A stretch of 64,000 nucleotides of DNA, taken from assembly GCA_900142905.1 (NCBI GenBank), contig FSRV01000002.1:2976001-3040000 (forward strand). Direction: 5' to 3'. The position numbers and the translations under genes are program-made. The stretch is from Burkholderia sp. GAS332. Its GTDB lineage: Bacteria > Pseudomonadota > Gammaproteobacteria > Burkholderiales > Burkholderiaceae. This document shows positions 5,423-29,615 of the stretch, in pieces; within the stretch, counting starts at the first letter, position 1, and each line of letters begins with the position of its first letter. The notes under the pieces are model-generated. The model saw only the letters and a program-made list of their open reading frames with translations. It was not told the DNA's origin and did no database searches.

Positions 5423-6463
5423 ATGATCATCGATTGCCACGGTCACTACACCACCTCTCCGCCGCAGCACGAGGCCTGGCGCGCGCAGCAGATCGCCGCG
5501 CTGAAAGACGGCGGCTCGCCGCCACCCCGCCCCCTCATTACCGACGACGAAATTCGCGAGAGCATCGAAACCGGCCAGATTCGTATCCAGCGCGAACGCG
5601 GCACCGACCTCACGATTTTTTCACCGCGCGCCGCCGGCATGGGCCATCACCTCGCCACGGCCGATGCCAATGCAGTCTGGTCGAGCGAATCCAACGACCT
5701 CATCCATCGTGTGGTTTCGCTGTTTCCGCGCAACTTCGTCGGCGTATGTCAGTTGCCGCAAGCGCCGGGCGTGGCCCCGGCCAATTGCATCGCCGAATTG
5801 CGGCGCTGCGTAGACGAGCTGGGGTTCATCGGCTGCAATCTGAATCCGGACCCGTCCGGCGGCCACTGGTCGGGGCTGCCGCTCACGGACCGCTCGTGGT
5901 ATCCGCTCTATGAAGCGATGGTGGAACTCGACGTGCCGGCGATGATTCACGTGTCGTCGTCGTGCAATCCGAATTTTCATGCAACCGGCGCGCATTACAT
6001 CAACGGCGACACGTCCGCTTTCATGCAATTGCTGCAGGGCGACCTGTTCGCCGACTTCCCGACCCTGCGCTTCATCATTCCGCACGGCGGCGGCGCAGTG
6101 CCCTATCACTGGGGACGCTATCGCGGGCTCGCGCAGGACATGAAGCGGCCGCTGCTCAGCGAGTACCTGATGAAGAACGTGTTCTTCGATACCTGCGTGT
6201 ACCACCAGCCCGGTGCAGAACTGCTCGCCAAGGTCATTCCGGTCGAGAACATCCTGTTCGCGTCGGAAACCATCGGCGCAGTTCAGGGTATCGATCCGGA
6301 AACCGGCCACTACTACGACGACACGCGGCGCTACATCGACGCCATCGAATGGCTTAGCGCCGCGGATCGTCAGCGTATCTACGAAGACAACGCCCGCGCG
6401 GTGTACCCGCGGCTGTCACATCAACTTGAGCAACAATTCGCCACGCAAGGGGCAACGGTATGA
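5423..6463 (+). CDS. ligJ: 4-oxalomesaconate hydratase (LigJ-type amidohydrolase)
   Basis: A 346-residue amidohydrolase-superfamily protein very like Sphingobium LigJ, which hydrates 4-oxalomesaconate to 4-carboxy-4-hydroxy-2-oxoadipate in protocatechuate and gallate 4,5-cleavage. Visible marks: DCHGHY at residues 4-9 (metal-binding His6 and His8), GFIGCNLNPDPSGGHW at 134-149, IHVSSSCNP with His176, IIPHGGGAVPYHWGR at 218-232, and ASETIGAVQGIDP at 280-292 (a likely acidic ligand at 282). The stop overlaps the start of the next gene (ATGA), giving tight coupling with the aldolase of the following step. Ring-cleavage dioxygenase and lactonase genes are not in the window. Confidence 0.9.
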   Translation: MIIDCHGHYTTSPPQHEAWRAQQIAALKDGGSPPPRPLITDDEIRESIETGQIRIQRERGTDLTIFSPRAAGMGHHLATADANAVWSSESNDLIHRVVSLFPRNFVGVCQLPQAPGVAPANCIAELRRCVDELGFIGCNLNPDPSGGHWSGLPLTDRSWYPLYEAMVELDVPAMIHVSSSCNPNFHATGAHYINGDTSAFMQLLQGDLFADFPTLRFIIPHGGGAVPYHWGRYRGLAQDMKRPLLSEYLMKNVFFDTCVYHQPGAELLAKVIPVENILFASETIGAVQGIDPETGHYYDDTRRYIDAIEWLSAADRQRIYEDNARAVYPRLSHQLEQQFATQGATV

Positions 6464-7140
6464 ATCTCACTACGAATCCCATCGGATGGCGCGAACACGA
6501 ATCCGCGCCTCAGGCAAACACGGCAACGCTCGATGCGTTACGTGAACTGGCGGTTTCGCTACTCAGCGACAACATGGCGCGCGCAAGCGGCATGGTCGGC
6601 TTACGGCCGTATCATCAGCCGAAGCCGATGGCCGGCACCGCGGTCACTGTCCATACCCGCCCCGGCGACAACCTCGCAATCCATCGCGCTTTCGACTTTT
6701 GCCGGCCCGGCGATGTGCTCGTGATCGACGGCGCGGGAGAGCTCACGCAAGCGTTGATGGGCGAGATCATGGCCAGCTTCGCGGAGAGCCTGGGCGTGCA
6801 GGGCCTCGTGATCGACGGTGCGATCCGCGATGTCGGCGCGCTACGTCAGCGCGATTTCCCGGTGTACGCGCGCGGCGTGACGCACCGCGGGCCTTACAAG
6901 AACGGGCCAGGCGAGATCAACGTGCCGGTCACGGTTGGCGGGATGGTGGTTCATCCGGGGGATATCATCGTTGGCGATGAAGACGGTTTGCTCGCGATCT
7001 CACCCGCTGACGTGGAAGCGGTGATCGAAGGTGCACGGCGGCAGCATACGAAAGAAACGGCGGCGTTGAAGTCGATCGCCAATGGGAGTTTCGACCGTTC
7101 GTGGGTCGTTCCCCATCGCGACCGGATGATGAACAACTGA
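6460..7140 (+). CDS. ligK: 4-carboxy-4-hydroxy-2-oxoadipate aldolase (RraA fold, LigK/GalC type)
   Basis: A 226-residue RraA-fold aldolase that would split 4-carboxy-4-hydroxy-2-oxoadipate into oxaloacetate and pyruvate. The class II pyruvate-aldolase signature is intact: Glu102, then 20 residues, then Arg123-Asp124 (GLVIDGAIRDVGAL), followed by VYARGVTHRGPYKNGPGEINVPV, as in characterised HMG/CHA aldolases. The ATG overlaps the ligJ stop by 4 bp. Together ligJ and ligK complete the lower branch of protocatechuate or gallate 4,5-cleavage. An RNase-regulator (RraA) role is unlikely given the context. Confidence 0.9.
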   Translation: MNLTTNPIGWREHESAPQANTATLDALRELAVSLLSDNMARASGMVGLRPYHQPKPMAGTAVTVHTRPGDNLAIHRAFDFCRPGDVLVIDGAGELTQALMGEIMASFAESLGVQGLVIDGAIRDVGALRQRDFPVYARGVTHRGPYKNGPGEINVPVTVGGMVVHPGDIIVGDEDGLLAISPADVEAVIEGARRQHTKETAALKSIANGSFDRSWVVPHRDRMMNN

Positions 7141-7247
7141 CTTCCCGCGCGGCGCCAGAGCGTGCATGATGTTGCTGGTTTGCCGCGTACCGTGAGTCGC
7201 GGCGAGCCAGCCAACATCGTCTCAACCCTGCAGGAATCGTGTGCCTC

Positions 7248-7646
7248 ATGGCGGAATATCTGAACGCTGCAACGCTCCTTGAACTCGCGCAACATGCGGA
7301 ACAGCGCGCTGCCGCGCCATGCATGTGTACCAGAACACCGCTGGAGGGCTGGCAATCGCAGCCGCTTTCGCTCGACGAAACGCAGTTCAAGGAAATCGGC
7401 ACGCTTGCACCGGATGACGATCCGGAACCTACCTTCAGCGAGTACCTGCCGGGCAAAACGAACTACTGGTCTGCCGACGCGCCCATCGCGCCGCGTTACT
7501 TCCCGTACAACCGCTGTGCCGTCTGGCAATGCTCGTTGTGCAGCCGTGTTTATCTGCGATACACGGAAGGGGGTGGCTACTTCGTCGACCGGAGGATTCG
7601 CGCTGTACAGTCGGCGCTGATCGAGGACGTTCCGCTTCCTGAGTGA
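7248..7646 (+). CDS. Hypothetical protein, Cys-rich, about 132 residues
   Basis: A small protein with no recognised family. It holds a CMCTR motif near residue 25 and a WQCSLCSRVYLRYTEGGGYFVD stretch near residue 95; these Cys pairs could bind a metal, though the spacing does not form a standard zinc finger. AGGA at 7232-7235 lies 12 bases from ATG 7248 and only 3 from an in-frame GTG at 7239, so the start is uncertain between the two. It stands alone between the ligK operon and a decayed AraC gene on the opposite strand. Similar orphan proteins are familiar from Burkholderiales, but I cannot name a function. Confidence 0.6.
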   Translation: MAEYLNAATLLELAQHAEQRAAAPCMCTRTPLEGWQSQPLSLDETQFKEIGTLAPDDDPEPTFSEYLPGKTNYWSADAPIAPRYFPYNRCAVWQCSLCSRVYLRYTEGGGYFVDRRIRAVQSALIEDVPLPE

Positions 7647-7660
7647 CGCAACGTGCGGAC

Positions 7661-8436
7661 CTAATGTCCAGGTTTCAGCGCCGCATACGTCCCCGGTGTG
7701 AACCCATATGCCCGCTTGAAAAGCCGGTTGAGATGGCTTTGATCGTAAAAGCCGACGGCCGCGGCGGCAGCCCAAACTCTTTGCAGAAGGCACGCGTGAG
7801 GTAATAGCGGCTCAGCCCCACCAGTTCCGCCAGTTCGTCGACCGGGATATCGCGCGCATAGTTGGCGGCAACGTACTCACGCACTTGCGCCATCTTGCGG
7901 GCTTCGCGCCGGCCATCGCCGAGTTCGTGCTGCGATTGCCCATATCGTCCGACCAGCATCCCCATCGCCGCCCACCAGTTCGCCTGCCGCTCCATCAGCG
8001 AGACCGAGCCGTGTTCGTCGAGGCTCGCATGCGCCTTGACCAGCAGACCGGCAAGGTGGGCATCCTGATAGAGCCCCGGCGGGATCAGAAGCGGCTTGTC
8101 GGGACGCGAGTCGGGCGAAAACACGGCGCCCAGCGCACCCACGCCCTCCATGTCGAGATAGATGGCGCGGTAATTCCATTCGCGGCCCTCCCACACCTCG
8201 CCGCTGTGATACTCGCCGGGTCCGAACACGAGCACGCTGCCAGGTCCGGCGACGTCGCTGCCGGTGCGCGTATGGCACTGCCCCGCGCCGGTTTCCGTCA
8301 TGACAATGACGAGTTCGTCGTGCAGATGCCGGTCGAACTTGTGCTCGCCGTAGCGTGCGGTCGCGAGACAGGCGCCGTCGAGCGCGCCGTCTCGCCAGCA
8401 CACCACCTCCGGCTCGCTTTTATCCGATGTGTCCAT
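7661..8436 (-). pseudogene. AraC-family regulator with internal deletion and frame change
   Basis: The N-terminal sensor (EHKFDRHLHDELVIVMTETG, cupin-like) and the first helix-turn-helix (PVDELAELVGLSRYYLTRAF) read normally from ATG 8436, which has a GGGAG site. After KEFGLPP the frame runs into unrelated residues and stops at 7675. The missing C-terminal end, AVGFYDQSHLNRLFKRAYG then FTPGTYAALKPGH, is intact in another frame and ends at 7661. Compared with intact relatives, about 27 codons linking the two helix-turn-helices are absent. Both the deletion and the frame change should destroy DNA binding. It is downstream of alaX on the same strand. Confidence 0.85.
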
Positions 8437-19236: not shown

Positions 19237-20421
19237 TCAGGCGGATTGCCCTTCGTCGAGCCGAGCAGTAATCAGAGCGAGTTGCCGCTGGACGTAGCGG
19301 ACCAACCCGCGCCATGTGATGCGCGTCAACCACAAGCACAGCCACAAGCCGACGATGCCGGCGGCCAGCAGCGCGAAACCGTAGATCATCGCGCCGATGC
19401 CCGAGCCATGCGACCCGACGATCACGACGTTATCCGCGCCGCTCCTGATCGCCATGTGGTCACGATCGATCACGACCGAATCCGACCCGCTCTGGACCGC
19501 CAGACTTTTACCGCTGCCGTCCATGCCTTGCACGAAGGACACGTGTTCGCCATGGTTCCTGATGTCCCATGCCATCGACTTCGAACCGGCACCAACGCGC
19601 GCGACCGATACCTTATCCCCTTCGTGATCCTTAAGATCGAGCGCGATGATGTCGGCGGATGCGATAGACCATGTGCCGTCCGGGTCGACTTTGAACAGAT
19701 CACGTGCGCCGCCAACCGAATTGATCCTGAGTTTTCCGCCGTCGTTCTTGATATCAATCGGACCGGCAAGCGTCACGATGGAAATCCGTGTGGCGGCGTC
19801 CGGCCGCAGCACGAAACGGTCACCATCCACTCGGAACACCTTCATATTGGCGGTTGCCTGGCTCGCGTCGCCCTGCGCGGAAGCGTGATCCGTGTTGCTC
19901 GAGTCGCTCTCGTCGGCATCGTCTTTCGCCGCCTTGTCTTTTCCGATAACACTCGCCAGCGGACCCGTTCTCACGTTACTGCTCTCGAAGGTGAACGGCA
20001 CCGAATGGAACGACGGCCACCCGAACAGGTGATGGCTCCCGAGCGCGACCACGGTCACGAGCCCAGCCACCGTCAGCGAACCCGAAACCACGTAGCCGAT
20101 CGTCAGCATCAGCAGATAGAACATGAACGGGATCAACAGGAACAACTGCAACAAGCCGAGCCCCGCGATCGATACGACCACCCGCATCAGGTTGCCGAAC
20201 GAGCGGCGCGTCTCCCACTGGCGGAAATTCGCCTGCGCCTTGAGTTCGCGTGCGAGCTTCACAGGATCGCCAAGCGCCGCGACCACCTCGACCTCACTGC
20301 GGCCCGCTGCGAGCGCATCGCCGAAGTACTCGCGATAGTCGGCGACGATTTCGTCGACCACCTTTTTCGGCAAACTCCGCAGTTCGTGGCGCAATTGCTG
20401 GATGAATGCGTCCTGCGTCAT
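19237..20421 (-). CDS. DUF1700 (HAAS-type) membrane protein with extracytoplasmic beta domain
   Basis: A 394-residue protein. Residues 1-55 form the HAAS/DUF1700 helical domain (FIQQLRHELRSLPKKVVDEIVADYREYFGDAL), followed by two or three membrane helices (about 75-135). A long hydrophilic region from 140 to 345 has repeating beta-strand character like bactofilin/DUF4097 domains, and a last membrane helix lies near 350-370. HAAS proteins are regularly paired with PadR-type regulators and are thought to act in envelope stress or signalling. It overlaps the PadR gene by 4 bp (20418-20421). The precise role is unknown. Confidence 0.78.
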   Translation of the reverse strand: MTQDAFIQQLRHELRSLPKKVVDEIVADYREYFGDALAAGRSEVEVVAALGDPVKLARELKAQANFRQWETRRSFGNLMRVVVSIAGLGLLQLFLLIPFMFYLLMLTIGYVVSGSLTVAGLVTVVALGSHHLFGWPSFHSVPFTFESSNVRTGPLASVIGKDKAAKDDADESDSSNTDHASAQGDASQATANMKVFRVDGDRFVLRPDAATRISIVTLAGPIDIKNDGGKLRINSVGGARDLFKVDPDGTWSIASADIIALDLKDHEGDKVSVARVGAGSKSMAWDIRNHGEHVSFVQGMDGSGKSLAVQSGSDSVVIDRDHMAIRSGADNVVIVGSHGSGIGAMIYGFALLAAGIVGLWLCLWLTRITWRGLVRYVQRQLALITARLDEGQSA

Positions 20422-20759
20422 TGCTTTTCCCCTGTTCCATAGGGCGTACCGGACAAGGCCAGCACACCGTTGACTTCATCGACAAAACTGCGCCATTCGC
20501 TTTGCATTTCCGCCAGACTGCTGCGGCCTGCCGCCGTCAGCGAGTAATACTTGCGAGGCGGCCCCGAACTGGATTCCACGAAATACGTCGACACCCACGC
20601 CTCGGCCTGCAAGCGGCGCATCAACGGGTAGATCGTGCCCTCGCTGATCTCCATGGTTTCGGAGAGCGTCGAGACGAGCTCGTACGCATAGCTGTCGCCG
20701 CCGGCGAGGACAGCTAGCACGCACATGTCGAGGGTTCCTTTCTTGAGCTGCGTTTTCAT
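20418..20759 (-). CDS. PadR-family transcriptional repressor
   Basis: A 113-residue winged-helix protein with the PadR signature: KGTLDMCVLAVLAGGDSYAYELVSTL, then EISEGTIYPLMRRLQAEAWV and GPPRKYYSLTAAGRSSLAEM. The short C-terminal helix (residues 82-105) should mediate dimer formation. The ATG has only a weak ribosome-binding site. It is translationally coupled to the DUF1700 gene. Two copies of an operator-like sequence lie 19-131 bp upstream, so it most likely represses its own unit. Confidence 0.87.
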   Translation of the reverse strand: MKTQLKKGTLDMCVLAVLAGGDSYAYELVSTLSETMEISEGTIYPLMRRLQAEAWVSTYFVESSSGPPRKYYSLTAAGRSSLAEMQSEWRSFVDEVNGVLALSGTPYGTGEKQ

Positions 20760-20777
20760 TCAATTCCATTACATTAG

Positions 20778-20806
20778 TGTGCATAGCACGGTACCTTGCT
20801 ATGCAC
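20778..20806. promoter_or_regulatory. PadR operator candidate 1 (perfect 10-8-10 palindrome)
   Basis: GTGCATAGCA at 20779-20788 is matched by its exact reverse complement at 20797-20806, across an 8-bp spacer. The 12-mer ACGGTACCTTGC at 20788-20799 recurs inverted at 20869-20880. It sits 19 bp upstream of the PadR start. Confidence 0.7.
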
Positions 20807-20868
20807 TGGTGCGGCGCGTACTGATCCGCCAGATGACGAACGAACTCTAGCACCCAGTATTGTTTAAT

Positions 20869-20890
20869 GCAAGGTACCGTTTTATGCACA
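20869..20890. promoter_or_regulatory. PadR operator candidate 2 (inverted copy of site 1)
   Basis: On the minus strand this reads TGTGCATA, two A, then ACGGTACCTTGC, matching site 1 at 20 of 22 positions but facing the other way, about 90 bp distant. It lies between the PadR unit and the divergent MHS operon, so it could affect both. Confidence 0.65.
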
Positions 20891-20954
20891 GGACGAAGCC
20901 GCTCACCGAGCCGGCCGTCCACCATTCGCCGCATTAATACAAAGAATTAGAAAA

Positions 20955-20993
20955 CAGACTTTTACTTATTGTTTTTGGCTTCCGATAAAGGCA
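20955..20993 (+). promoter_or_regulatory. Shared 39-bp element A before the MHS operon
   Basis: An AT-rich element with ACTTAT near its middle, then TTTTTG, and ending CGATAAAGGCA. About 29 of 39 positions match the element at 25963-26001 without gaps. The TTAT and ATAA ends form a LysR-type box (T-N11-A style). It ends 62 bp before the ATG at 21056. The neighbouring LysR gene at 24956-25933 is the likely binder. Confidence 0.7.
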
Positions 20994-21055
20994 CCAGGCC
21001 ATGCGCGCAATGGCTGCGTTCATCCACGAAACCGCCATGCCTCAAGGAGAAACCC

Positions 21056-22408
21056 ATGACGTCCTATCGCCCCGCGGACACGCCACCGCCGCCAGACGGC
21101 ACCCAAAGCAACATGAAAAAGATCGCGGTGGCGAGTGTGATCGGCACGACCGTCGAATGGTATGACCTGTTCGTTTTCGCCACCGCCTCGGCGCTCGTCT
21201 TCAACAAGGTGTTCTTTCCCGGCTTTGTCCCGTTGGTCGGCACCTTGCTGGCGTTCGGCACGTTTGCCTCCGCCTACCTCGCGCGCATTGTCGGTGCCGC
21301 CCTGTTCGGCCATTTCGGCGACCGCCTCGGACGCAAGGCGATGCTGCTGGTCTCGCTCATCATCATGGGCATCGCGACGTTCTCGATTGGCCTGTTGCCG
21401 AACTACGCGTCGATCGGCATCTGGGCACCCATTCTGCTGCTCACCTTGCGCGTCATTCAGGGACTCGCGCTCGGCGGCGAATGGGGCGGCGCCGTGCTGA
21501 TGGCGGTGGAACACGCACCCGCCGGCAAGCGTGGACTGTATGGTTCGTGGGTGCAGATCGGTGTGCCTGCCGGTACCCTGATCGCCAATCTGGCGTTTCT
21601 GGTCTGCAATGCCACGCTTTCAAACGACGCACTGCTCTCCTGGGGCTGGCGCATTCCGTTCCTTACGAGCGCATTGCTCGTGGGGGTCGGGCTTTATATC
21701 CGTCTGAACACATCCGAAACGCCGTCGTTTCGCAAAATCAAGGAAGCCGACGCCCAGGTCAAATTGCCGATCGCCGAGGTACTCACCCGATACTGGAAGC
21801 AGGTTCTGCTCGGCGGCATCGCGACCATGTCGACGGGCACCTCGTTCAACCTGATCGTCGCTTTCGGGCTAACCTATGGGACGCAAACGCTAGGCTTCTC
21901 ACGCAACGCGATGCTTTCCATCGCATTGATTGCCTGCGCGCTCTGCATCGTGTTGTTGCCGGCCTTCGGCAAGCTATCCGATATCGTGGGCCGCAAACCG
22001 GTGATCATCGGCGGCATCGTCGCGGAAGCCCTGCTCGCTTTCCCGCTTTTCTGGCTGCTGGATACGCGCGAGTTTCCGTTTGCACTGCTCGGCTATCTGC
22101 TGATGATGACCGCCTTCGCCGCGAACTATGGACCCATCGCAACCTTCCTCGCGGAGTTGTTCGGCACCGAGGTTCGCTACTCCGGCCTGTCGGTGAGCTA
22201 TATGTTGTCCGGCCTGCTCGGCAGTGCCGCCACGCCAATTGTCACCACCGCGCTGTTGTCCGCTACGGGCCGCGGTTCGTCGGTGGCGTGGTACATGATG
22301 GGCTCTGCTGCTGTTTCGGTACTCGCACTCGTGCTGCTCGCCGAGACGCTGCGCCGCGATATCTCGTCTGCGTCGCGCGCCAACGCCGCCACGGCGAGCC
22401 TTTCGTGA
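21056..22408 (+). CDS. MHS-family metabolite:H+ symporter (MFS)
   Basis: A 450-residue MFS permease of the MHS branch (relatives: ShiA, KgtP, ProP). Seen: GTTVEWYDLFVFATASALVFNKVFFP in helix 1, FGDRLGRKAMLLVSLIIMG in loop 2-3, LRVIQGLALGGEWGGAVLMAVEHAP (diagnostic), and GRKPVIIGG in loop 8-9. ATG 21056 follows AAGGAGA at 21044-21050; upstream in-frame codons are not family-like. First gene of a four-gene operon with an RraA-fold protein, a class II aldolase and a GhrA-like reductase, so the cargo is probably a small hydroxy- or oxo-acid. Confidence 0.88.
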   Translation: MTSYRPADTPPPPDGTQSNMKKIAVASVIGTTVEWYDLFVFATASALVFNKVFFPGFVPLVGTLLAFGTFASAYLARIVGAALFGHFGDRLGRKAMLLVSLIIMGIATFSIGLLPNYASIGIWAPILLLTLRVIQGLALGGEWGGAVLMAVEHAPAGKRGLYGSWVQIGVPAGTLIANLAFLVCNATLSNDALLSWGWRIPFLTSALLVGVGLYIRLNTSETPSFRKIKEADAQVKLPIAEVLTRYWKQVLLGGIATMSTGTSFNLIVAFGLTYGTQTLGFSRNAMLSIALIACALCIVLLPAFGKLSDIVGRKPVIIGGIVAEALLAFPLFWLLDTREFPFALLGYLLMMTAFAANYGPIATFLAELFGTEVRYSGLSVSYMLSGLLGSAATPIVTTALLSATGRGSSVAWYMMGSAAVSVLALVLLAETLRRDISSASRANAATASLS

Positions 22409-22441
22409 ACGTCTGATATGAAAACGGAAAGGGCCGCTCTT

Positions 22442-23101
22442 ATGCAAGCCACGCTAGACTCATCCTTACTACACAGCCTCGAATCCGTCAGCTTCCCGAC
22501 ACTCGGGCATTTTCTGGAAAACGGCTTCGCGGATCATCGCCTTCGCGCAATGGTCTCCAACGTGAAGGTGGTCGGGCGCGCGGTGACGCTCAAGCTGCTG
22601 TCGCCCGACGCGATCCCTGTGAACCGCGCGCTGTCGCAACTCAACCCCGGCGACGTGCTGGTGATCGACATGAGCGGTGACCACACGCATGCGCCGGTCG
22701 GAGCGGTCACGGCATGCGCCGCGCTCAATGCCGGCGCGAGGGGTGTCATCGTCGACGGCGTGGTGACCGACCTCATCGAACTACGCAGCACGGGGCTGCC
22801 GGTGTTCGCGCGCGGAACTTCGTTGCTGACGACCAAAAAACGCGACACGATGTCGAGTCTGTTCAACGAACCGGTGGTGTGCGGCGGCGTCGTGGTGCGC
22901 CCTGGCGACATCGTGCTGGCCGACGACAACGGCGTGCTGTTCGCCGAAGCGCCGGCCCTTGCCGCCGTGATCGATCTGGCGCTGGCCTCAGACCACGCGG
23001 AGCCCGCCATACTGGCTCGGCTTAACGCCAAGGAGCCGCTTCACGAGGTCCTGCAGTGCTTCCTGTCGTCAAGTATTCACGCTGCTAATGATCAGCATTA
23101 G
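22442..23101 (+). CDS. RraA-fold protein lacking the aldolase Arg and acidic residue
   Basis: A 219-residue member of the RraA/LigK family. ATG 22442 was chosen because GGAAAGGG lies eight bases upstream; an ATG at 22418 is in frame but poorly placed. The fold is recognisable (LNPGDVLVIDMSGDHTHAPVG, GVIVDGVVTDLIEL, VFARGTS, VCGGVVVRPGDIVLADDNGVLF). The signature acidic residue-X20-Arg-Asp reads Ala88-X20-Thr109-Asp110. Class II pyruvate aldolases of this fold need the Arg, so this protein probably does another reaction, such as decarboxylation or hydrolysis, or a non-catalytic job. It is co-directional with the MHS and class II aldolase genes. Confidence 0.85.
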   Translation: MQATLDSSLLHSLESVSFPTLGHFLENGFADHRLRAMVSNVKVVGRAVTLKLLSPDAIPVNRALSQLNPGDVLVIDMSGDHTHAPVGAVTACAALNAGARGVIVDGVVTDLIELRSTGLPVFARGTSLLTTKKRDTMSSLFNEPVVCGGVVVRPGDIVLADDNGVLFAEAPALAAVIDLALASDHAEPAILARLNAKEPLHEVLQCFLSSSIHAANDQH

Positions 23102-23181
23102 AACATTGAAATTGACGGACACTGACGCGCTAACGAACACTACGCGCACTACAGCAAGTGAGAACCTGGGAGACTTCTGAA

Positions 23182-23985
23182 ATGCAATCCACGCCCACAC
23201 CCGATCGCATGAGCGACAAACCGGCGCCGCGGGGTGCCGAACAACAGGTACGAGAGGAACTGGCGGCGCTCTACCGGCTGGCCGCTCACTTTCGCATGAC
23301 CGACATGATCGACACGCACATCACGGCGCGCCTGCCCGGTTCGCCGGGCGAGCCGCCGGCGTTTCTGATCAACCGCTATGGCGTGCTGTTTCACGAGATG
23401 CGCGCGTCGGACCTCGTGAAGATCGATCATCTCGGCAACGTCATCGACGAGCGGGCGCACAGCGAGCCGGCGCTGTTTCGTGTGAACGCCGCCGGGTTCA
23501 CGATTCATTCGGCCATCCACGCGGCACGCGACGATCTGCATTTCGTGATCCATACGCACACCGCAGCCGGAACAGCCGTATCGGCTCAGGAGCAGGGACT
23601 GCTGCCGATCAGTCAGCATGCGTTGAAGTTCTACGGCAAGCTGGCCTATCACGATTACGAGGGCATCGCGCTCGAACTGGGCGAGCGTGAGCGTCTGGTG
23701 CGCGACCTCGGTTCCTGCAAGGCGATGATCCTGCGCAACCATGGCTTGCTTGCGGCAGGCACCACGGCAGCCGAAGCGTTCCACGAGATCTATTTCCTCG
23801 AGCGTGCCTGTCAGGCGCAAATCCAGGCGCTGGCCGGCGGCAGCGCGCTGCGCATCCCGCCGCGAGAAGTGTGCGAGTTGACCGCGAGCCAGTTCGCTCG
23901 CGAGGACTCCGCGGAAATAGCGGAGCTAGCGTGGCACGCAGCGTTAAGGTTGATCGACGACCCGCAATCCGACTACCGCAACTAG
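23182..23985 (+). CDS. Class II aldolase/adducin-domain protein
   Basis: A 267-residue protein of the L-fuculose-phosphate aldolase / adducin fold. Zinc ligands visible: HTH at residues 124-126 (FVIHTHTAAGTAVS) and His187 (LRNHGLLAAG). There is also ITARLPG and a long C-terminal helical tail after residue 215, as in the decarboxylase/dehydratase-like branch common in Burkholderia. Such proteins act on hydroxy-acid or sugar-phosphate substrates by retro-aldol cleavage or decarboxylation. Third gene of the operon, 80 bp after the RraA-like gene and 22 bp before the reductase. Substrate unknown. Confidence 0.85.
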   Translation: MQSTPTPDRMSDKPAPRGAEQQVREELAALYRLAAHFRMTDMIDTHITARLPGSPGEPPAFLINRYGVLFHEMRASDLVKIDHLGNVIDERAHSEPALFRVNAAGFTIHSAIHAARDDLHFVIHTHTAAGTAVSAQEQGLLPISQHALKFYGKLAYHDYEGIALELGERERLVRDLGSCKAMILRNHGLLAAGTTAAEAFHEIYFLERACQAQIQALAGGSALRIPPREVCELTASQFAREDSAEIAELAWHAALRLIDDPQSDYRN

Positions 23986-24007
23986 GCCCGCTTTCCGATT
24001 CGATGCA

Positions 24008-24934
24008 ATGACCAAATTAGTTCTGATGAGCCGTGACTACGACATGTCACACCTGGTGCAGCCGATTCTGCGCGCCGCCCCTGAATTCGATGTCGTGATG
24101 CACGGCGAGCGATCCGCCGGCGATGCTGACATTGCCGTGTGCTGGAATCCGCCGGCCGGCGCGCTGGCGGCGCTGCCGAACCTGCGGCTCGTGCATAGCA
24201 TCGCCGCGGGTGTCGACAACATTCTGTCCGACCCTGCGCTGCCCGCCGTACCGCTGTGCCGGGTCGTCGATCCGCAACACGCACGCGGAATGAGCGAATT
24301 CGTGACTTGGGGAGTGCTGCACTTTCATCGTCAACTCGACCGCGTTCTCGCCAATCAGCGTCTTAACCGCTGGTTCCGCCACGATCGGCGCGATGCTGCC
24401 GAATGCGCCATCGGCATCATGGGACTGGGAGAAATCGGCAGCCGCGTCGCGACGGATTTGCAGCGCTTCGGCTTTGCGGTGCGCGGCTGGGCACGCAAGT
24501 CCCGTGAACTGCCGGGCGTGACGACTTTCGCCGGTCCGCAGGAATTCAAGCCATTCCTCCAGGGGACGGACATCCTCGTGTGTCTCTTGCCGCTCACGCA
24601 CGAAACTCGCTGGATTCTCAACGCGAACACGTTCGAGCACTTACGGCCTGGCGCGAAGCTGATTCACGTCGGTCGTGGCGAACATCTAGTGCCTGCGGAC
24701 CTGATTGCGGCGCTGACGAGTGGGCAGATCGGAGGTGCAATCGTCGACGTGTTCCCGACGGAGCCGCTACCACCTGAAGATCATTTATGGCGGGCACCGA
24801 ATCTGATCGTGACGCCTCACATGGCGTCGGTCGCGAGTTCGGAGACGATCGGCTCGCAAGTGGCGCTCAATGCACGCAGGCTGATTCGCGGCGAACCGCT
24901 GGAGAACGTGGTCGACGTCACGCGCGGCTACTGA
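24008..24934 (+). CDS. D-2-hydroxyacid dehydrogenase, glyoxylate/hydroxypyruvate reductase A-like
   Basis: A 308-residue protein like GhrA, reducing 2-oxoacids such as glyoxylate or hydroxypyruvate with NAD(P)H. Rossmann motif GLGEIGSR at residues 139-146; catalytic Arg223 (HVGRGEHL), Glu252 (DVFPTEPLP) and His271 (VTPHMAS) are all present. It ends the operon and stops 21 bp before the convergent LysR gene. In this setting it may reduce a 2-oxoacid released by the aldolases, or work in the oxidative direction on an imported 2-hydroxyacid. Confidence 0.88.
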   Translation: MTKLVLMSRDYDMSHLVQPILRAAPEFDVVMHGERSAGDADIAVCWNPPAGALAALPNLRLVHSIAAGVDNILSDPALPAVPLCRVVDPQHARGMSEFVTWGVLHFHRQLDRVLANQRLNRWFRHDRRDAAECAIGIMGLGEIGSRVATDLQRFGFAVRGWARKSRELPGVTTFAGPQEFKPFLQGTDILVCLLPLTHETRWILNANTFEHLRPGAKLIHVGRGEHLVPADLIAALTSGQIGGAIVDVFPTEPLPPEDHLWRAPNLIVTPHMASVASSETIGSQVALNARRLIRGEPLENVVDVTRGY

Positions 24935-24955
24935 GCGAAGCAGTTGAGCGCGGCG

Positions 24956-25933
24956 CTAAAGGTCAGCACTTTCCGCCTGGCCGTCGATGAACACGTTCAG
25001 GGCATCGATAAACGCGGCTTCAGCGGCGCTCAGCTTGCGGTCCAGTGACCACAGCATGTAGATATCGAGGTCGGCCACGCCTTCATCCGGCGGCAGCCGC
25101 TGAAGGCGGCCTTGAGCGATGTCATCGCGCACGACGTGTTCCGGCAGGCAGCCGATGCCGAAGCCCGCGAAGGTGAAACGCCTCACCTCGGTCATGCTCG
25201 ACGATGAGCCGACCACGCGCCCCGTGAAGCCCATCTCGTCACGAAAGAACGTGAGCGGCGACAGGTGATCGCCCACTTTGTCGCCGGTGAAGGAGACGAA
25301 CTTCTCGCCTGCAAGATCGGCGACCCGCAGATCGTCGCGTCCAAAGAGCGGATGATGACGTCCGCAGAAAAGTGCGTACCGTTGACGCAGAAACACGCGG
25401 CTGTCGACCCGTTTGGGTAACGCGCGCCGCGGCGTCAGTCCAAGCGTCGCGGATTTTTGCTGAAGACTGTTCACCACATCGGCGCTGCGCATTTCCTGAC
25501 TTTCGAGTTCGATACGCGGATACGTGCGATGGAACTCCGCGAGAAACGTGTCGTAGGCCGGAAAATCGATGCCGCTGACGGTACTCACACGCACCATGCC
25601 GGAGATATCGTGATCGCGATCCACCTCGGCAAGCGACAGGCGCGAGATCGTGCCGTATACGTCTTCAGCAATCTGCTTCACTTCGATTCCGGCCTGCGTG
25701 ACCTCGATGCGCGGACCGTGGCGATCCACGAGGCGCAGTCCCAACTGCTCTTCCAGGCGGCGCAGCGCCTGGCTCACGGCGGGCTGCGTCAGATGCAGCT
25801 TCGTCGCCGCACGACTCACGCTGCCTTCTTTCGCAATGGCGAGAAAAGTCCGCAGCAGATTCCAGTCGAGGCGGTCGTTCAGATAGGTGTCCGGGCGGTC
25901 TTTGCTCACGATGAGCCTCACTGTTTTCATCAT
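24956..25933 (-). CDS. LysR-family regulator, probable controller of the 21-29.6 kb regulon
   Basis: A 325-residue LysR protein with a slightly long N-terminus (about 20 residues before the DNA-binding domain). The helix-turn-helix spans about residues 23-82 (WNLLRTFLAIAKEGSVSRAATKLHLTQPAVSQALRRLEEQLG), followed by a two-lobed effector domain with FAGFGIGCLPEHVV. Divergent from the M20 amidohydrolase gene and convergent with the MHS operon, it sits between the two units that share a regulatory element. That position makes it the best candidate for binding the elements near 20955, 25963 and 28243. Confidence 0.88.
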   Translation of the reverse strand: MMKTVRLIVSKDRPDTYLNDRLDWNLLRTFLAIAKEGSVSRAATKLHLTQPAVSQALRRLEEQLGLRLVDRHGPRIEVTQAGIEVKQIAEDVYGTISRLSLAEVDRDHDISGMVRVSTVSGIDFPAYDTFLAEFHRTYPRIELESQEMRSADVVNSLQQKSATLGLTPRRALPKRVDSRVFLRQRYALFCGRHHPLFGRDDLRVADLAGEKFVSFTGDKVGDHLSPLTFFRDEMGFTGRVVGSSSSMTEVRRFTFAGFGIGCLPEHVVRDDIAQGRLQRLPPDEGVADLDIYMLWSLDRKLSAAEAAFIDALNVFIDGQAESADL

Positions 25934-25962
25934 CCGCCAAAATTATACTTAGGATTAGAATT

Positions 25963-26001
25963 AGAAATTAGACTTATCATTTTTGATTACGGATAAAGGC
26001 A
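25963..26001 (+). promoter_or_regulatory. Shared 39-bp element B in the lysR / amidohydrolase intergenic region
   Basis: It matches element A at about 29 of 39 aligned positions. It holds TTATC, a 13-bp gap, then GATAA, an interrupted palindrome of LysR type, and ends GATAAAGGCA. It lies 29 bp from the LysR start and ends 49 bp before the amidohydrolase ATG, where a LysR protein would bind to activate the operon and repress itself. Confidence 0.75.
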
Positions 26002-26050
26002 TCACGACGAACCCGACGCGGCCATCTCGCCGCGACTTCAGGAGTGTGTG

Positions 26051-27283
26051 ATGCTAAAGATCAATGGTGAGCGGCTCTGGACGAGCCTGATGAACATGGC
26101 TGCGGTCGGCGCCACGGCCGGTGGCGGTGTGCGGCGCCTCGCCCTGACCGAACAGGACGCGGCAGGCCGAGCGCTTTTTTCGCAATGGTGCGTCGAGGCC
26201 GGGCTCACGTTGTCCGTCGATCAGGTGGGCAATCTCTTCGCCCGGCGCGCCGGCAAACGGGACGACGCCGCGCCCGTCGCAAGCGGGAGCCACCTTGACA
26301 CCCAGCCCGAGGGCGGCCGCTTCGACGGGGTCTACGGCGTACTCGCCGCGCTCGAAGTCGTCCGCACCCTGAACGATGCCGGCATTCAAACCGACAAGCC
26401 CATCGAGATCGTCGTATGGACCAACGAGGAAGGCGCGCGCTTCACGCCGGCGATGCTCGGTTCAGCGGCCTTCACGGGCATCATGCCGCTCGCCCAGGCG
26501 TTGAACACGCGCGATGCAGCAGGGACATCGGTCGAGCAGGCATTGCAAGCAACAGGTTATGCCGGCACGCGCGCCGTGCCCGGCATCGTCTTCGACGCCT
26601 ACTTCGAGGCGCACATCGAACAGGGCCCTGTACTCGAGGAAAGCGGCGTGCCGATCGGCGTCGTCACGGGTGGCCAGGCCATTCGCTGGCTCGACGTGCA
26701 TGTGCGAGGACAGGCAGCACATGCGGGCACGACGCCGATGCAGTACCGCCGCGATGCGCTGTTTGCAAGCGCGGAAATGGCCGCGGAACTGGAAAGCATC
26801 GCGGCGGATTTCTTCCCGCAAGGCCTCGCCACCATCGGCGAGCTGCACATCCGCAATGCATCGCGCAACACCATCGCTGCAGACCTGTCGTTCACGGTGG
26901 ACCTGCGTCACCCCGACGACGCGATGATCGACAAAATGGAAGCCGCGCTGCGCGAGCGCTTCGATGCGATTGCGAAGCGCCGCCGCCTCACGGTCGAGGT
27001 GGGGCAGCATTGGGTCAGTCCGGCTACGCCGTTCGACCCGCACTGCATTGCTGCTGTCAGCAACGCGGTAGCGGCGCTGGACTATCCGCATCAACGCATC
27101 GTCAGCGGCGCAGGTCACGACGCGATCCATCTCGCCAAACATTGTCCGACCGCGATGATTTTTATTCCTTGCGTCGACGGTCTGAGCCATAACGAAGCCG
27201 AAGACGCTTTGCCGGCCGACGTCACGCGTGGCACGGACGTGTTACTTCACGCGATGCTGGCACGCGCTGGGCAGGCCGTATGA
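26051..27283 (+). CDS. M20-family amidohydrolase (N-carbamoyl-amino-acid hydrolase / allantoate amidohydrolase type)
   Basis: A 410-residue zinc/manganese hydrolase of the HyuC/AllC/UAH group, which cleaves N-carbamoyl or ureido bonds to release ammonia and CO2. Metal ligands and motifs: GSHLDTQPEGGRFDG at residues 79-93 (His81, Asp92), TNEEGARF at 124-131 (Glu126, Glu127), AHIEQGP with His188, GAGHDA, and SHNEAE near the end. ATG 26051 has GGAG six bases upstream; a GTG one codon earlier is less well placed. The ATGA overlap with the lyase gene implies joint action. The true substrate is unknown; the setting does not look like a purine or hydantoin operon. Confidence 0.87.
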   Translation: MLKINGERLWTSLMNMAAVGATAGGGVRRLALTEQDAAGRALFSQWCVEAGLTLSVDQVGNLFARRAGKRDDAAPVASGSHLDTQPEGGRFDGVYGVLAALEVVRTLNDAGIQTDKPIEIVVWTNEEGARFTPAMLGSAAFTGIMPLAQALNTRDAAGTSVEQALQATGYAGTRAVPGIVFDAYFEAHIEQGPVLEESGVPIGVVTGGQAIRWLDVHVRGQAAHAGTTPMQYRRDALFASAEMAAELESIAADFFPQGLATIGELHIRNASRNTIAADLSFTVDLRHPDDAMIDKMEAALRERFDAIAKRRRLTVEVGQHWVSPATPFDPHCIAAVSNAVAALDYPHQRIVSGAGHDAIHLAKHCPTAMIFIPCVDGLSHNEAEDALPADVTRGTDVLLHAMLARAGQAV

Positions 27284-28182
27284 ACGTTTATCAACCACCG
27301 CGTCCGCCAGTCATCCGGCGCACCTGGCTCTTCGTGCCCGGCAACCATTCCGAGGCCCACGCAGCCGCCCTGCGCAGCGGCGCCGACGCCGTCGTCGCCG
27401 ACCTGGAAGAAATGACTTCGCCGCAAGACCGGCCGCAGGCACGCGAACGCATTGTCACGCTATTGCGCGAAGCGGCTCGCGCCGGCACGTTCGGCTCGGT
27501 ACGGATCAACAAACTGGAGCACGACGGCCATGCCGATCTCGAAGGCGTTATGCCCGGCACCCCACGGGCGATTTTTCTACCGCACGCGGAGAGCACGGCT
27601 CAACTGGCCGCGCTCGACGATGCGCTGGCCGTCATCGAGCGCAAGCTGGGCCTTCCGGAGGGCTCGACGGAGGTGGTTCCAGTTATCGAATCCGCGAAGG
27701 GTCTGGTCAATCTGGGAGCGTTACTTCAGGTGGGTGCACGGATAAAGTGCTGCATGCTCGCGGTCGAAGACCTGGCGGCGAATCTCGGCGCACGCCGCAC
27801 GCCGGGCGGTAACGAACTGCTTTACGCACGCAGCCGTTTTCTGATCGAGTGCGTTGCCGCCGGCTGCGTGCCGATCGATCTTCCTTGTACATATCGGTCG
27901 GCACAGGTGCTTGGGCAGGACCTGGACATCTCCACGCAACTCGGATTCGCATCGAAAAGCGTCGTGTTTCCCGAACACGTGCCCGCGATCCATCGCGTGC
28001 TGACGCCATCCGCGGAAGACGTGCAGGCAGCGCGTGCACTCATCGACGCGCACGCAGTACAGCAGGCAAATCCACCCCCTGCCGGATCGGCATGGATCGA
28101 CTACCCGGAGCGCAATAACGCGCAACGGCTGATCGCGCGTGCCGCGCTCCTCCGCGCCTTTGACGACAGCGGCAACGCATAA
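27280..28182 (+). CDS. HpcH/HpaI-CitE-type aldolase/lyase
   Basis: A 300-residue TIM-barrel protein of the CitE/HpcH family, which cleaves C-C bonds of malyl-, citramalyl- or hydroxyacyl compounds with Mg. Seen: RTWLFVPGNHSEAHAAALRSGADAVVADLEEM with the metal site, substrate Arg in GSVRINKLEHD, VVPVIESAKGLVNL with metal Glu, and CMLAVEDLAANLGA with metal Asp. The C-terminal CitE lid is present. It overlaps the M20 gene by 4 bp. Whether it works on CoA esters or free acids cannot be seen. Confidence 0.87.
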   Translation: MNVYQPPRPPVIRRTWLFVPGNHSEAHAAALRSGADAVVADLEEMTSPQDRPQARERIVTLLREAARAGTFGSVRINKLEHDGHADLEGVMPGTPRAIFLPHAESTAQLAALDDALAVIERKLGLPEGSTEVVPVIESAKGLVNLGALLQVGARIKCCMLAVEDLAANLGARRTPGGNELLYARSRFLIECVAAGCVPIDLPCTYRSAQVLGQDLDISTQLGFASKSVVFPEHVPAIHRVLTPSAEDVQAARALIDAHAVQQANPPPAGSAWIDYPERNNAQRLIARAALLRAFDDSGNA

Positions 28183-28242
28183 GCCGGGCGAGCATTAGCC
28201 GCCTTGATACTGAAGATTAAAAATCCGAATTTTGCAGGCGTA

Positions 28243-28257
28243 TATCGGCGACCGATA
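28243..28257 (+). promoter_or_regulatory. Palindrome C before the second MHS gene, related to elements A and B
   Basis: TATCGG, CGA, CCGATA, with the right arm extending to CCGATAAAG as in element A. It ends 47 bp upstream of the MHS ATG. The left part is not conserved with A and B, so membership of the same set is probable but weaker. Confidence 0.5.
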
Positions 28258-28304
28258 AAGACGGCAGTCAAGCCACCGCTGTTCGTCCATCAACAGGATT
28301 CCCC

Positions 28305-29615
28305 ATGTCCCATTCTGAACAGACTCATCAGCCGGTGCGCGCCGCCACCGCGGCTTTTATCGGCACGGCTGTCGAGTTTTACGACTACTACACCTACGCA
28401 ACGGCCGCCGCGCTCGTTCTCGGTGACGTGTTCTTCCCGAGCAGCAATCACTTCCTCAGTACGATGGCGTCGTTCGGCACGTTCTTTGTCGGCTTCATTG
28501 CGCGTCCGTTGAGCGGCGCGGTGTTCGGGCATCTCGGCGACAAGCTGGGCCGCAAGAAGATGCTGCTGCTGACCATGTTCCTGATGGGGATCGCCACCAC
28601 CGGCATCGGCCTGCTGCCCGGCTACGCCAGCATCGGCATCTGGGCACCCATCTCGCTGGTGCTGTTGCGGATTCTCCAGGGCATTGCCGTCGGCGGCGAA
28701 TGGGGCGGCGCGGTGCTGATGGCAAGCGAGCACGCGCCAACCGGCCGCAAGACGTTCTTCGCATCCTTTCCGCAGATGGGTAGCCCGGCCGGCTTGATTC
28801 TTTCGCTCGTGTCGTTCAGGCTCGTTACCTCGCTCGATCACGAAAGCTTCGTTGCCTGGGGTTGGCGCCTGCCGTTTCTGGCCAGCTTCGTGCTGCTCCT
28901 GATCGGCATGGCGATCCGTCTCGGCGTAAAAGAGTCGCCCGAGTTCGAGCAGCTTCGCAAGAATCGCGAGGTGCTGAAGTCGCCCGTCAAGGAAGTGCTG
29001 CGCACCGCGTGGTATCCGATCGTCATGGCGGCGATGGCCACGACGATCGGCTCCGCCGGGTTCTTCTTCACCAACACGTTCATGATCTCGTATGTCACCG
29101 GCTATCTCGGCATGTCGAAATCGTTCATTCTCGATTGCCTGTTTGTGGTCACCCTCATCCAGTTGGCGTCCCAGCCGGTTTCGGCGCTGCTGGCCCAGCG
29201 TGTTGGAGAGACCCGCTTTCTGACCTACGCCGCCCTGCTATCCATGCTCACGCCCTACCCGATGTTTCTGCTCGTCCAGACACATAATCCGGTCGCGATC
29301 GTGGCGGGTATCTCGCTCGCGGTGGTGGTCCTGTCCGCCATCTACGCAGTCATCGCCGGTTTCATGACGCCGGCATTTCCCACGCAGGTCCGATACTCCG
29401 GCATTTCGATTGCTTATCAACTGTGCGCGACGATCGCCGGTGGGACGACGCCGTTGATCGGTACGATGCTCGCGCAGAACTACAAGGGCGAGTGGCTGCC
29501 ACTGGCGATTTTCTTCACCTTGCTTTCGGCCGTGTCGCTGGTTGGAATCGTGGGGCTCGGGCGTTATCGCAAGGGGATACGCGCGGAGGGATCTGCTGCA
29601 GTGCTTGCCAACTAG
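28305..29615 (+). CDS. MHS-family metabolite:H+ symporter (MFS), second copy
   Basis: A 436-residue MHS permease with the same diagnostic features as the protein at 21056-22408: GTAVEFYDYYTYATAAALVLGDVFFP, FGHLGDKLGRKKMLLLTMFLMG, and RILQGIAVGGEWGGAVLMASEHAP. It differs in loop 6-7 and the C-terminal half, so it is a paralogue and not a recent duplicate. Its own palindrome lies in the 122-bp gap after the lyase gene. Probably imports a substrate for the amidohydrolase and lyase. Confidence 0.88.
   Translation: MSHSEQTHQPVRAATAAFIGTAVEFYDYYTYATAAALVLGDVFFPSSNHFLSTMASFGTFFVGFIARPLSGAVFGHLGDKLGRKKMLLLTMFLMGIATTGIGLLPGYASIGIWAPISLVLLRILQGIAVGGEWGGAVLMASEHAPTGRKTFFASFPQMGSPAGLILSLVSFRLVTSLDHESFVAWGWRLPFLASFVLLLIGMAIRLGVKESPEFEQLRKNREVLKSPVKEVLRTAWYPIVMAAMATTIGSAGFFFTNTFMISYVTGYLGMSKSFILDCLFVVTLIQLASQPVSALLAQRVGETRFLTYAALLSMLTPYPMFLLVQTHNPVAIVAGISLAVVVLSAIYAVIAGFMTPAFPTQVRYSGISIAYQLCATIAGGTTPLIGTMLAQNYKGEWLPLAIFFTLLSAVSLVGIVGLGRYRKGIRAEGSAAVLAN

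What the first reader, a model, noticed from the sequence alone, without database searches (positions are those of the whole stretch)
20955..28257. A shared 39-bp element suggests one LysR regulon over two units of an undescribed pathway
The sequences at 20955-20993 and 25963-26001 match at about 29 of 39 positions without gaps and end in GATAAAGGCA. A palindrome at 28243-28257 shares the right arm (CGATAAAG). Each lies 47-72 bp before a start codon: the first MHS gene, the amidohydrolase and the second MHS gene. The only regulator inside the block is the LysR at 24956-25933. The spacing of TTAT and ATAA arms fits a LysR box. That LysR binds all three is inference.
Basis: partly seen in the sequence, partly recalled or inferred. 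Interest (0 to 1): 0.78.

Follow-up and report, generated by a model that had tools for sequence, protein, structure and literature searches.

The report
Conserved LysR regulon of unknown pathway
Three (probably four) promoters in a cluster of uncharacterised metabolic genes of a Paraburkholderia share a long, evolutionarily conserved control element that looks like the landing site of the LysR-type switch protein encoded among them; this is a normal kind of bacterial regulation, mapped here for an apparently unstudied set of genes.

Summary
The shared element is real and larger than reported. In the stated register the two 39-bp stretches match at 27 of 39 positions; ungapped similarity runs about 70 bp (A-B 48/70, A-C 46/70, B-C 38/70; 0 of 300 shuffles reach any). 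Anatomy: a T-N11-A box, a second box 22 bp downstream, a -35-like hexamer, 17 bp, and an invariant GATAAA. If GATAAA is the -10, the first box is centred at -65, the usual LysR position (recalled). A fourth, partial site precedes the class II aldolase. Genome-wide (10.4 Mb) the only strong matches are A, B, C and one beside a 61%-identical LysR paralogue. In the genus 79 of 81 LysR genes of this type have a divergent site within 250 bp, and the site follows the genes through rearrangements. A model trained only on paralogue promoters of other genomes still finds B and A, not C. "One LysR regulon" is well supported; binding, inducer, direction of control and pathway remain untested. New member of a known kind.

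The parts
20923..20939 (+). Site A, recognition-type box CATTCGCCGCATTAATA (T-N11-A)
   Evidence: a site upstream of 17 of 17 MHS1 orthologues examined
20946..20960 (+). Site A, second box (activation-type), 22 bp downstream of the first; incomplete T-N11-A (C at the A position)
20961..20966 (+). Site A, -35-like hexamer TTTACT, 17 bp before GATAAA
   Evidence: hexamer role inferred
20984..20989 (+). Site A, invariant GATAAA, inferred -10
   Evidence: 24 of 24 sites; the consensus scan does not call a promoter here
21056..22408 (+). First MHS transporter (metabolite/H+ symporter family)
   Evidence: best NCBIfam hit below its cut-off
22418..23101 (+). RraA-like protein
23070..23119 (+). Site D: partial element (box 23074-23090, second box 23097-23111, TTGACG 23112-23117, GAACAC where GATAAA would be) before the class II aldolase; overlaps the 3' end of the RraA gene
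   Evidence: above control in 23 of 31 Ald2 orthologues, one of which (L003) is site A itself
23182..23985 (+). Class II aldolase family protein
24008..24934 (+). D-2-hydroxyacid dehydrogenase (GhrA-like)
24956..25933 (-). LysR-type regulator; true start possibly GTG at 25907-25909, not ATG at 25931-25933
   Evidence: stop directly after ATGATG in L007, L008, L066
25931..25947 (+). Site B, recognition-type box CATCCGCCAAAATTATA (T-N11-A)
25942..25947 (-). TATAAT, inferred lysR -10, inside the site B box (negative autoregulation inferred)
   Evidence: sequence
25954..25968 (+). Site B, second box (T-N11-A)
25969..25974 (+). Site B, -35-like TAGACT
25992..25997 (+). Site B, GATAAA, inferred -10
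26051..27283 (+). M20 hydantoinase/carbamoylase/allantoate-amidohydrolase-family hydrolase
27280..28182 (+). HpcH/HpaI-CitE-like lyase
28193..28209 (+). Site C, recognition-type box CATTAGCCGCCTTGATA (T-N11-A)
28216..28230 (+). Site C, second box (T-N11-A)
28231..28236 (+). Site C, -35-like TTTGCA
28254..28259 (+). Site C, GATAAA, inferred -10
28305..29615 (+). Second MHS transporter
   Evidence: best NCBIfam hit below its cut-off

Best explanation
The element is the control region of a LysR-type regulon. A LysR tetramer, encoded at 24956-25933, anchors on a T-N11-A box and contacts a second, weaker box 22 bp (about two helical turns) downstream that abuts a poor -35 hexamer; with its unknown inducer bound it helps RNA polymerase start at the GATAAA promoter. 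This would switch on the first MHS/RraA unit (A), the amidohydrolase/lyase unit (B), the second MHS gene (C) and, perhaps, through a promoter without a GATAAA, the aldolase/dehydrogenase pair (D). At B the first box overlaps the TATAAT of the divergent lysR promoter, so LysR probably represses itself. Shown: element, spacing, conservation, near-exclusivity, co-occurrence with LysR. Inferred: that LysR is the binder, the tetramer, the -10/-35 roles, activation, autoregulation. Unknown: inducer and pathway.
For: Ungapped ~70-bp similarity of A, B and C. Invariant T-N11-A in 24 of 24 aligned sites and a second AT-N11-AT (83%) 22 bp on. Own genome: A, B, C and the LysR-paralogue promoter (all four in the training set) are the only hits below E 1e-14; the next is site D at E 0.10, not in the training set. 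Hold-out model R2, from 8 paralogue promoters of other genomes, returns three hits in 10.4 Mb: own paralogue, B (E 0.0013), A (E 0.0046). 79 of 81 LysR genes of the family in the genus have a divergent site within 250 bp. In 32 loci, sites precede 17 of 17 MHS1, 24 of 24 M20 and 25 of 26 MHS2 orthologues, 13 of these being weak Ralstonia-type or partial scores rather than strong ones counted at M20 (6 of 24) and MHS2 (6 of 26) plus low-scoring ones above the reversed-sequence control (part of these sites trained the model). The site follows rearranged genes: before MHS2 in L070/L071, MHS1 in L072, a solute-binding protein in Caballeronia L011/L014. The recognition helix LHLTQPAVSQAL is identical in the two paralogues of the own genome; in G266, a 48% relative with no site, it is changed.
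Against: No binding, expression or transcription-start data. GATAAA lacks the final T of a good -10, and a standard sigma-70 scan finds no promoter here, so the -65 numbering is conditional. G052 keeps site A with a truncated RraA and no LysR hit at E <= 1e-60. L008 keeps MHS2 but has lost site C. M20 in G117 and MHS2/Ald2 units in G118 and G056 keep sites with no LysR mapped beside them; those genomes list only the paralogue elsewhere. The hold-out model misses C. Two LysR genes (G033:C1, G012:C79) have no site within 250 bp. Site D is weak and overlaps coding sequence.
Confidence: 0.85

Rival explanations
1. The sites are read by the paralogous LysR (own genome C1:2350527-2351420), or by both LysRs, so the cluster's own LysR is not the sole regulator.
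For: Near-identical element at the paralogue's divergent promoter and identical LHLTQPAVSQAL helix. In G117, G118 and G056 cluster-type genes keep sites although one search lists only the paralogue in those genomes.
Against: G018, G043, G063, G074 and G123 have the cluster LysR as their only listed match and keep A and B. The hold-out model scores A and B far below the paralogue's own site and misses C, so the two operator classes have drifted apart.
Confidence: 0.3
2. One reading: LysR reads the TTAT...ATAA arms or the 15-bp palindrome inside the 39 bp.
For: T-N11-A at columns 57/69 in 92% of sites. Published LysR models have a third inverted repeat overlapping the target promoter (passages of PMC5002191).
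Against: TTAT at that place in only 6 of 24 sites; the outer arm of the palindrome varies in relatives; invariance of GATAAA is explained by its place 17 bp after a -35-like hexamer.
Confidence: 0.12
3. Promoters kept alike by common descent or recent duplication, without a shared regulator.
For: Both MHS genes belong to one transporter family, so a promoter could have been copied with a gene.
Against: Best tblastn matches between the two MHS types are 37-41% identical, yet promoters match ungapped over about 70 bp, with the invariant columns concentrated in the boxes and GATAAA. The element also sits before unrelated genes (M20, aldolase, solute-binding protein).
Confidence: 0.03
4. The flanking PadR regulator (20418-20759) controls the first MHS unit.
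For: Divergent to MHS1, with its own palindrome at 20780-20805.
Against: No PadR was mapped beside MHS1 in L001, L004, L005, L009, L021, L064 or L065, which all keep site A; sites B and C have no PadR beside them in the window.
Confidence: 0.05

Closest known systems
Divergent LysR-type systems (GcvA, MetR, OxyR, IlvY and others in PMC5002191; passages read)
   Same: Regulator and target usually divergent, two to three inverted repeats in the intergenic region, one of them over the regulator's own promoter and one overlapping the target promoter; an extended CTATA-n9-TATAG consensus is reported there
   Different: Other genes, unknown inducer, box sequence YATnnGCCnnnnTnATA in A, B and C, and extra copies in front of units that are not divergent to lysR
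LysR recognition/activation site model (passage of PMC8407307; passages of PMC11739112)
   Same: T-N11-A recognition site plus an activation site within a 50-60 bp bound stretch; tetramer with inducer-dependent contacts
   Different: Only sequence evidence here
Paralogous LysR-MHS-M20-histone-deacetylase-like amidohydrolase locus (L075, L077)
   Same: LysR 61% identical (own-genome copy), same element before a divergent MHS gene, M20 about 70% identical in L077-L079
   Different: Adds a histone-deacetylase-like amidohydrolase (scanned in L075 and L077); no RraA, aldolase or CitE-like gene was mapped beside it in L075-L079; M20 was not mapped in L075 or L076. No paper on it was found in the searches

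Membership tests
LysR-type regulator (protein) | N-terminal LysR HTH and C-terminal substrate-binding domain | tested here: met
   PF00126 E 4e-23 and PF03466 E 5.3e-35
LysR-type operator | Interrupted dyad T-N11-A in each promoter | tested here: met
   24 of 24 aligned sites; site D also has it
LysR-type operator | Box centred near -65 (position recalled) | tested here: inconclusive
   Centre 53 bp before GATAAA in A, B and C; -65 only if GATAAA is the -10; transcription start not mapped
LysR-type operator | Second, weaker box next to the -35 | tested here: met
   AT-N11-AT at column 30 in 83% of 24 sites, 22 bp from the first; site A itself lacks the A of this second box
LysR-type regulon | Divergent lysR/target with overlapping promoters | tested here: met
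   79 of 81 LysR genes in the genus have a divergent site within 250 bp; TATAAT inside the site B box, its role as lysR -10 inferred
LysR-type regulon | LysR binds the sites and controls the genes | not testable with these tools
   needs footprint, mutant and RNA data
LysR-type regulon | A small-molecule inducer | not testable with these tools
   unknown; the 25 NCBIfam hits shown for LysR (of 57) are all below their cut-offs

The most novel reading that the evidence does not exclude
Two paralogous LysR regulators with the same recognition helix share one operator class that occurs almost nowhere else in the genome, and so join two undescribed catabolic loci (the window's aldolase/dehydrogenase/amidohydrolase set and the MHS/histone-deacetylase-like set) into one cross-regulated network; genomes that lost one LysR keep the sites because the other reads them.
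Probability: 0.3. Interest if true: 0.5.

Novelty: new member of a known kind. Interest (0 to 1): 0.37.

Why it matters
It gives a LysR subfamily, on which I found no paper and which is present in about 30% of the sampled genomes of the window's family (121 of 398 at E <= 1e-70, both paralogue types counted), a precise operator and a target list. That ties transporters, an amidohydrolase, two aldolase/lyase types and a dehydrogenase into one presumed pathway whose substrate can now be sought by reporter screening. The paralogue pair is a natural case for asking how duplicated regulators divide their sites. It also illustrates a known pitfall (named in PMC5002191): a shared motif can be dominated by the core promoter while the regulator's own box lies beside it.

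Tried and rejected
Degenerate IUPAC patterns: the 46-bp pattern finds A and B only; a shorter one finds four weak hits and none of the known sites; profile models replaced them. A standard sigma-70 scan finds no promoter in 20760-28310; among its demands is T at the last -10 position, which GATAAA lacks. PadR as the common factor: rejected, it was not mapped beside site A in seven loci. Pathway: family scans give only broad families; literature searches for the gene set returned 0 papers; a betaproteobacterial regulon paper (PMC6449761) holds none of the five terms looked for. I did not settle on a substrate. Weak site-only genomes G189 (E 5.9e-4) and G367 (E 7.7e-5) and the hits G001:C6:1448425 and G124:C3:618140 were not followed up. 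The hold-out model misses site C. The one-genus and family scans used stricter Infernal filters that lose some weak matches.
Full report
OBSERVATION. A best-window test against 300 dinucleotide shuffles gives 29/39 for A-B (shuffle maximum 25), 28/39 for A-C (maximum 24) and 23/39 for B-C (4 of 300 shuffles reach it); over 70 bp all three pairs exceed every shuffle (48, 46 and 38). The site before the second MHS gene is thus a full third copy.

ANATOMY. Aligned without gaps on GATAAA, 24 sites from the window and relatives share A8-T9, A21-T22, A30-T31, A36, T44-T45, C49 and GATAAA in every row. T9-N11-A21 is a LysR-type dyad; AT-N11-AT recurs 22 bp downstream in 83% of sites. A hexamer 17 bp before GATAAA reads TTGACT in all five paralogue promoters of that alignment and TTTACT, TAGACT and TTTGCA in A, B and C. 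If GATAAA is the -10, the first box is centred at -65 and the second at -43. That reading is inference: GATAAA lacks the last T of the consensus and a generic scan calls no promoter.

A FOURTH SITE. Model R1, built from those 24 sites, finds A, B and C in the window (E 1e-19 to 3e-17; all in the training set) and a partial site D, not in the training set, at 23070-23119 (E 0.0006), with both boxes and TTGACG but no GATAAA, before the class II aldolase. With a matrix from the same alignment, 23 of 31 Ald2 orthologues have such a stretch above the reversed-sequence control maximum (in L003 it is site A itself); the eight without are six Ralstonia-type loci, L071 and L072. D overlaps the end of the RraA gene, so part of its conservation may be coding.

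GENOME-WIDE. In the own genome R1 gives four hits below 1e-14: A, B, C and a site beside a 61% identical LysR on contig 1, all four of them training sites; then D at E 0.10 and two chance-level hits. As a test free of that circularity, model R2 was built from eight paralogue promoters of other genomes. Its only hits in 10.4 Mb at E <= 10 are the own paralogue, B (E 0.0013) and A (E 0.0046); C is missed (150 of 325 first-look candidates were scored).

RELATIVES. LysR relatives at E <= 1e-60 occur in 64 of 144 genus genomes. Sites occur in 63 of 141; the two LysR-positive genomes absent from that list, G016 and G095, also have sites, and G052 alone has a site without a LysR hit at that threshold. 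Of 81 LysR genes, 79 have a divergent site within 250 bp; of 126 listed sites, 47 are not adjacent to a LysR. The loci holding 45 of those 47 were laid out: one (G012:C79:10592) precedes an unassigned ORF, one (G052) a truncated RraA, and 43 lie before MHS1, MHS2, M20 or aldolase genes (genome and named loci matched by sequence); the other two were not examined. In the family sample 118 genomes have both, 3 LysR only, 5 site only and 272 neither (Fisher p 1e-90, not corrected for relatedness). Of the five site-only genomes three (G304, G309, G410) have pieces of the paralogue LysR beside the site and two are weak hits. Of the three LysR-only genomes, G266 and G311 carry a 48-49% relative and G450 a truncated LysR overlapping a truncated MHS gene; R1 finds no site in those three loci at E <= 1. 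In G266 the recognition helix is changed (G311 was not aligned).

REARRANGEMENTS. The order differs among lineages and the element goes with the genes: M20 and MHS2 back to back in Ralstonia, with a one-base shift at M20 and a partial site at MHS2; MHS2 beside LysR in L070 and L071; MHS1 beside LysR in L072; a solute-binding protein beside LysR in Caballeronia L011 and L014; in L003 MHS1 and RraA were not mapped and site A stands before the aldolase. In 32 loci sites stand above the control before 17 of 17 MHS1, 24 of 24 M20 and 25 of 26 MHS2 orthologues; the Ralstonia-type ones (6 of the M20, 6 of the MHS2) score low. Counter-examples: L008 keeps MHS2 but has lost site C, and G052 keeps site A with a truncated RraA and no LysR hit.

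MECHANISM. The simplest account is the standard LysR one: a tetramer anchored on the first box, shifting on the second with inducer, activating promoters with poor hexamers, and shutting its own divergent promoter at B, where TATAAT (25942-25947, minus strand) lies in the box. Published passages describe this kind of layout (PMC5002191; PMC8407307; PMC11739112; passages only were read). In L007, L008 (P. fungorum) and L066 a stop follows ATGATG at once, so LysR there cannot start at that ATG, and the GTG at 25907-25909 is a likely start.

PATHWAY. Two MHS transporters, RraA-like, class II aldolase, GhrA-like dehydrogenase, M20 hydrolase and CitE-like lyase suggest uptake and breakdown of a carboxylated amide or ureido compound; this is a guess. 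No paper on the set was found in three searches.

VERDICT.

Noticed in passing
window 20780-20805 and 20867-20888: Palindrome TGCATAGCA..TGCTATGCA and an inverted partial copy between PadR (20418-20759) and site A; looks like a PadR operator (type recalled).
   Followed up: partly
window 25907-25933: The ATGATG start of the LysR ORF lies in or beside the site B box and is followed at once by a stop in L007, L008 and L066; the GTG at 25907-25909 is the likelier start.
   Followed up: partly
L075:7480-11167; L077:2762-7548: Paralogous LysR-MHS locus with a histone-deacetylase-like amidohydrolase (and M20 in L077), carrying the same operator.
   Followed up: partly
L126 (G052) 6366-7778: Remnant of the cluster: site A, a truncated RraA and an aldolase gene, with no LysR mapped.
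   Followed up: partly
L155 (G410) and L154 (G304): Paralogue LysR and MHS match only in broken pieces (in G410 also M20 and the deacetylase-like gene), while the element still scores strongly.
   Followed up: partly
L011:7006-7815 and L014:7053-7862: In Caballeronia the element stands before an amino-acid-type solute-binding protein divergent to LysR.
   Followed up: partly
L130:3902-4093: Back-to-back sites between divergent MHS2 and M20 in G019, about 8.8 kb from its LysR.
   Followed up: no
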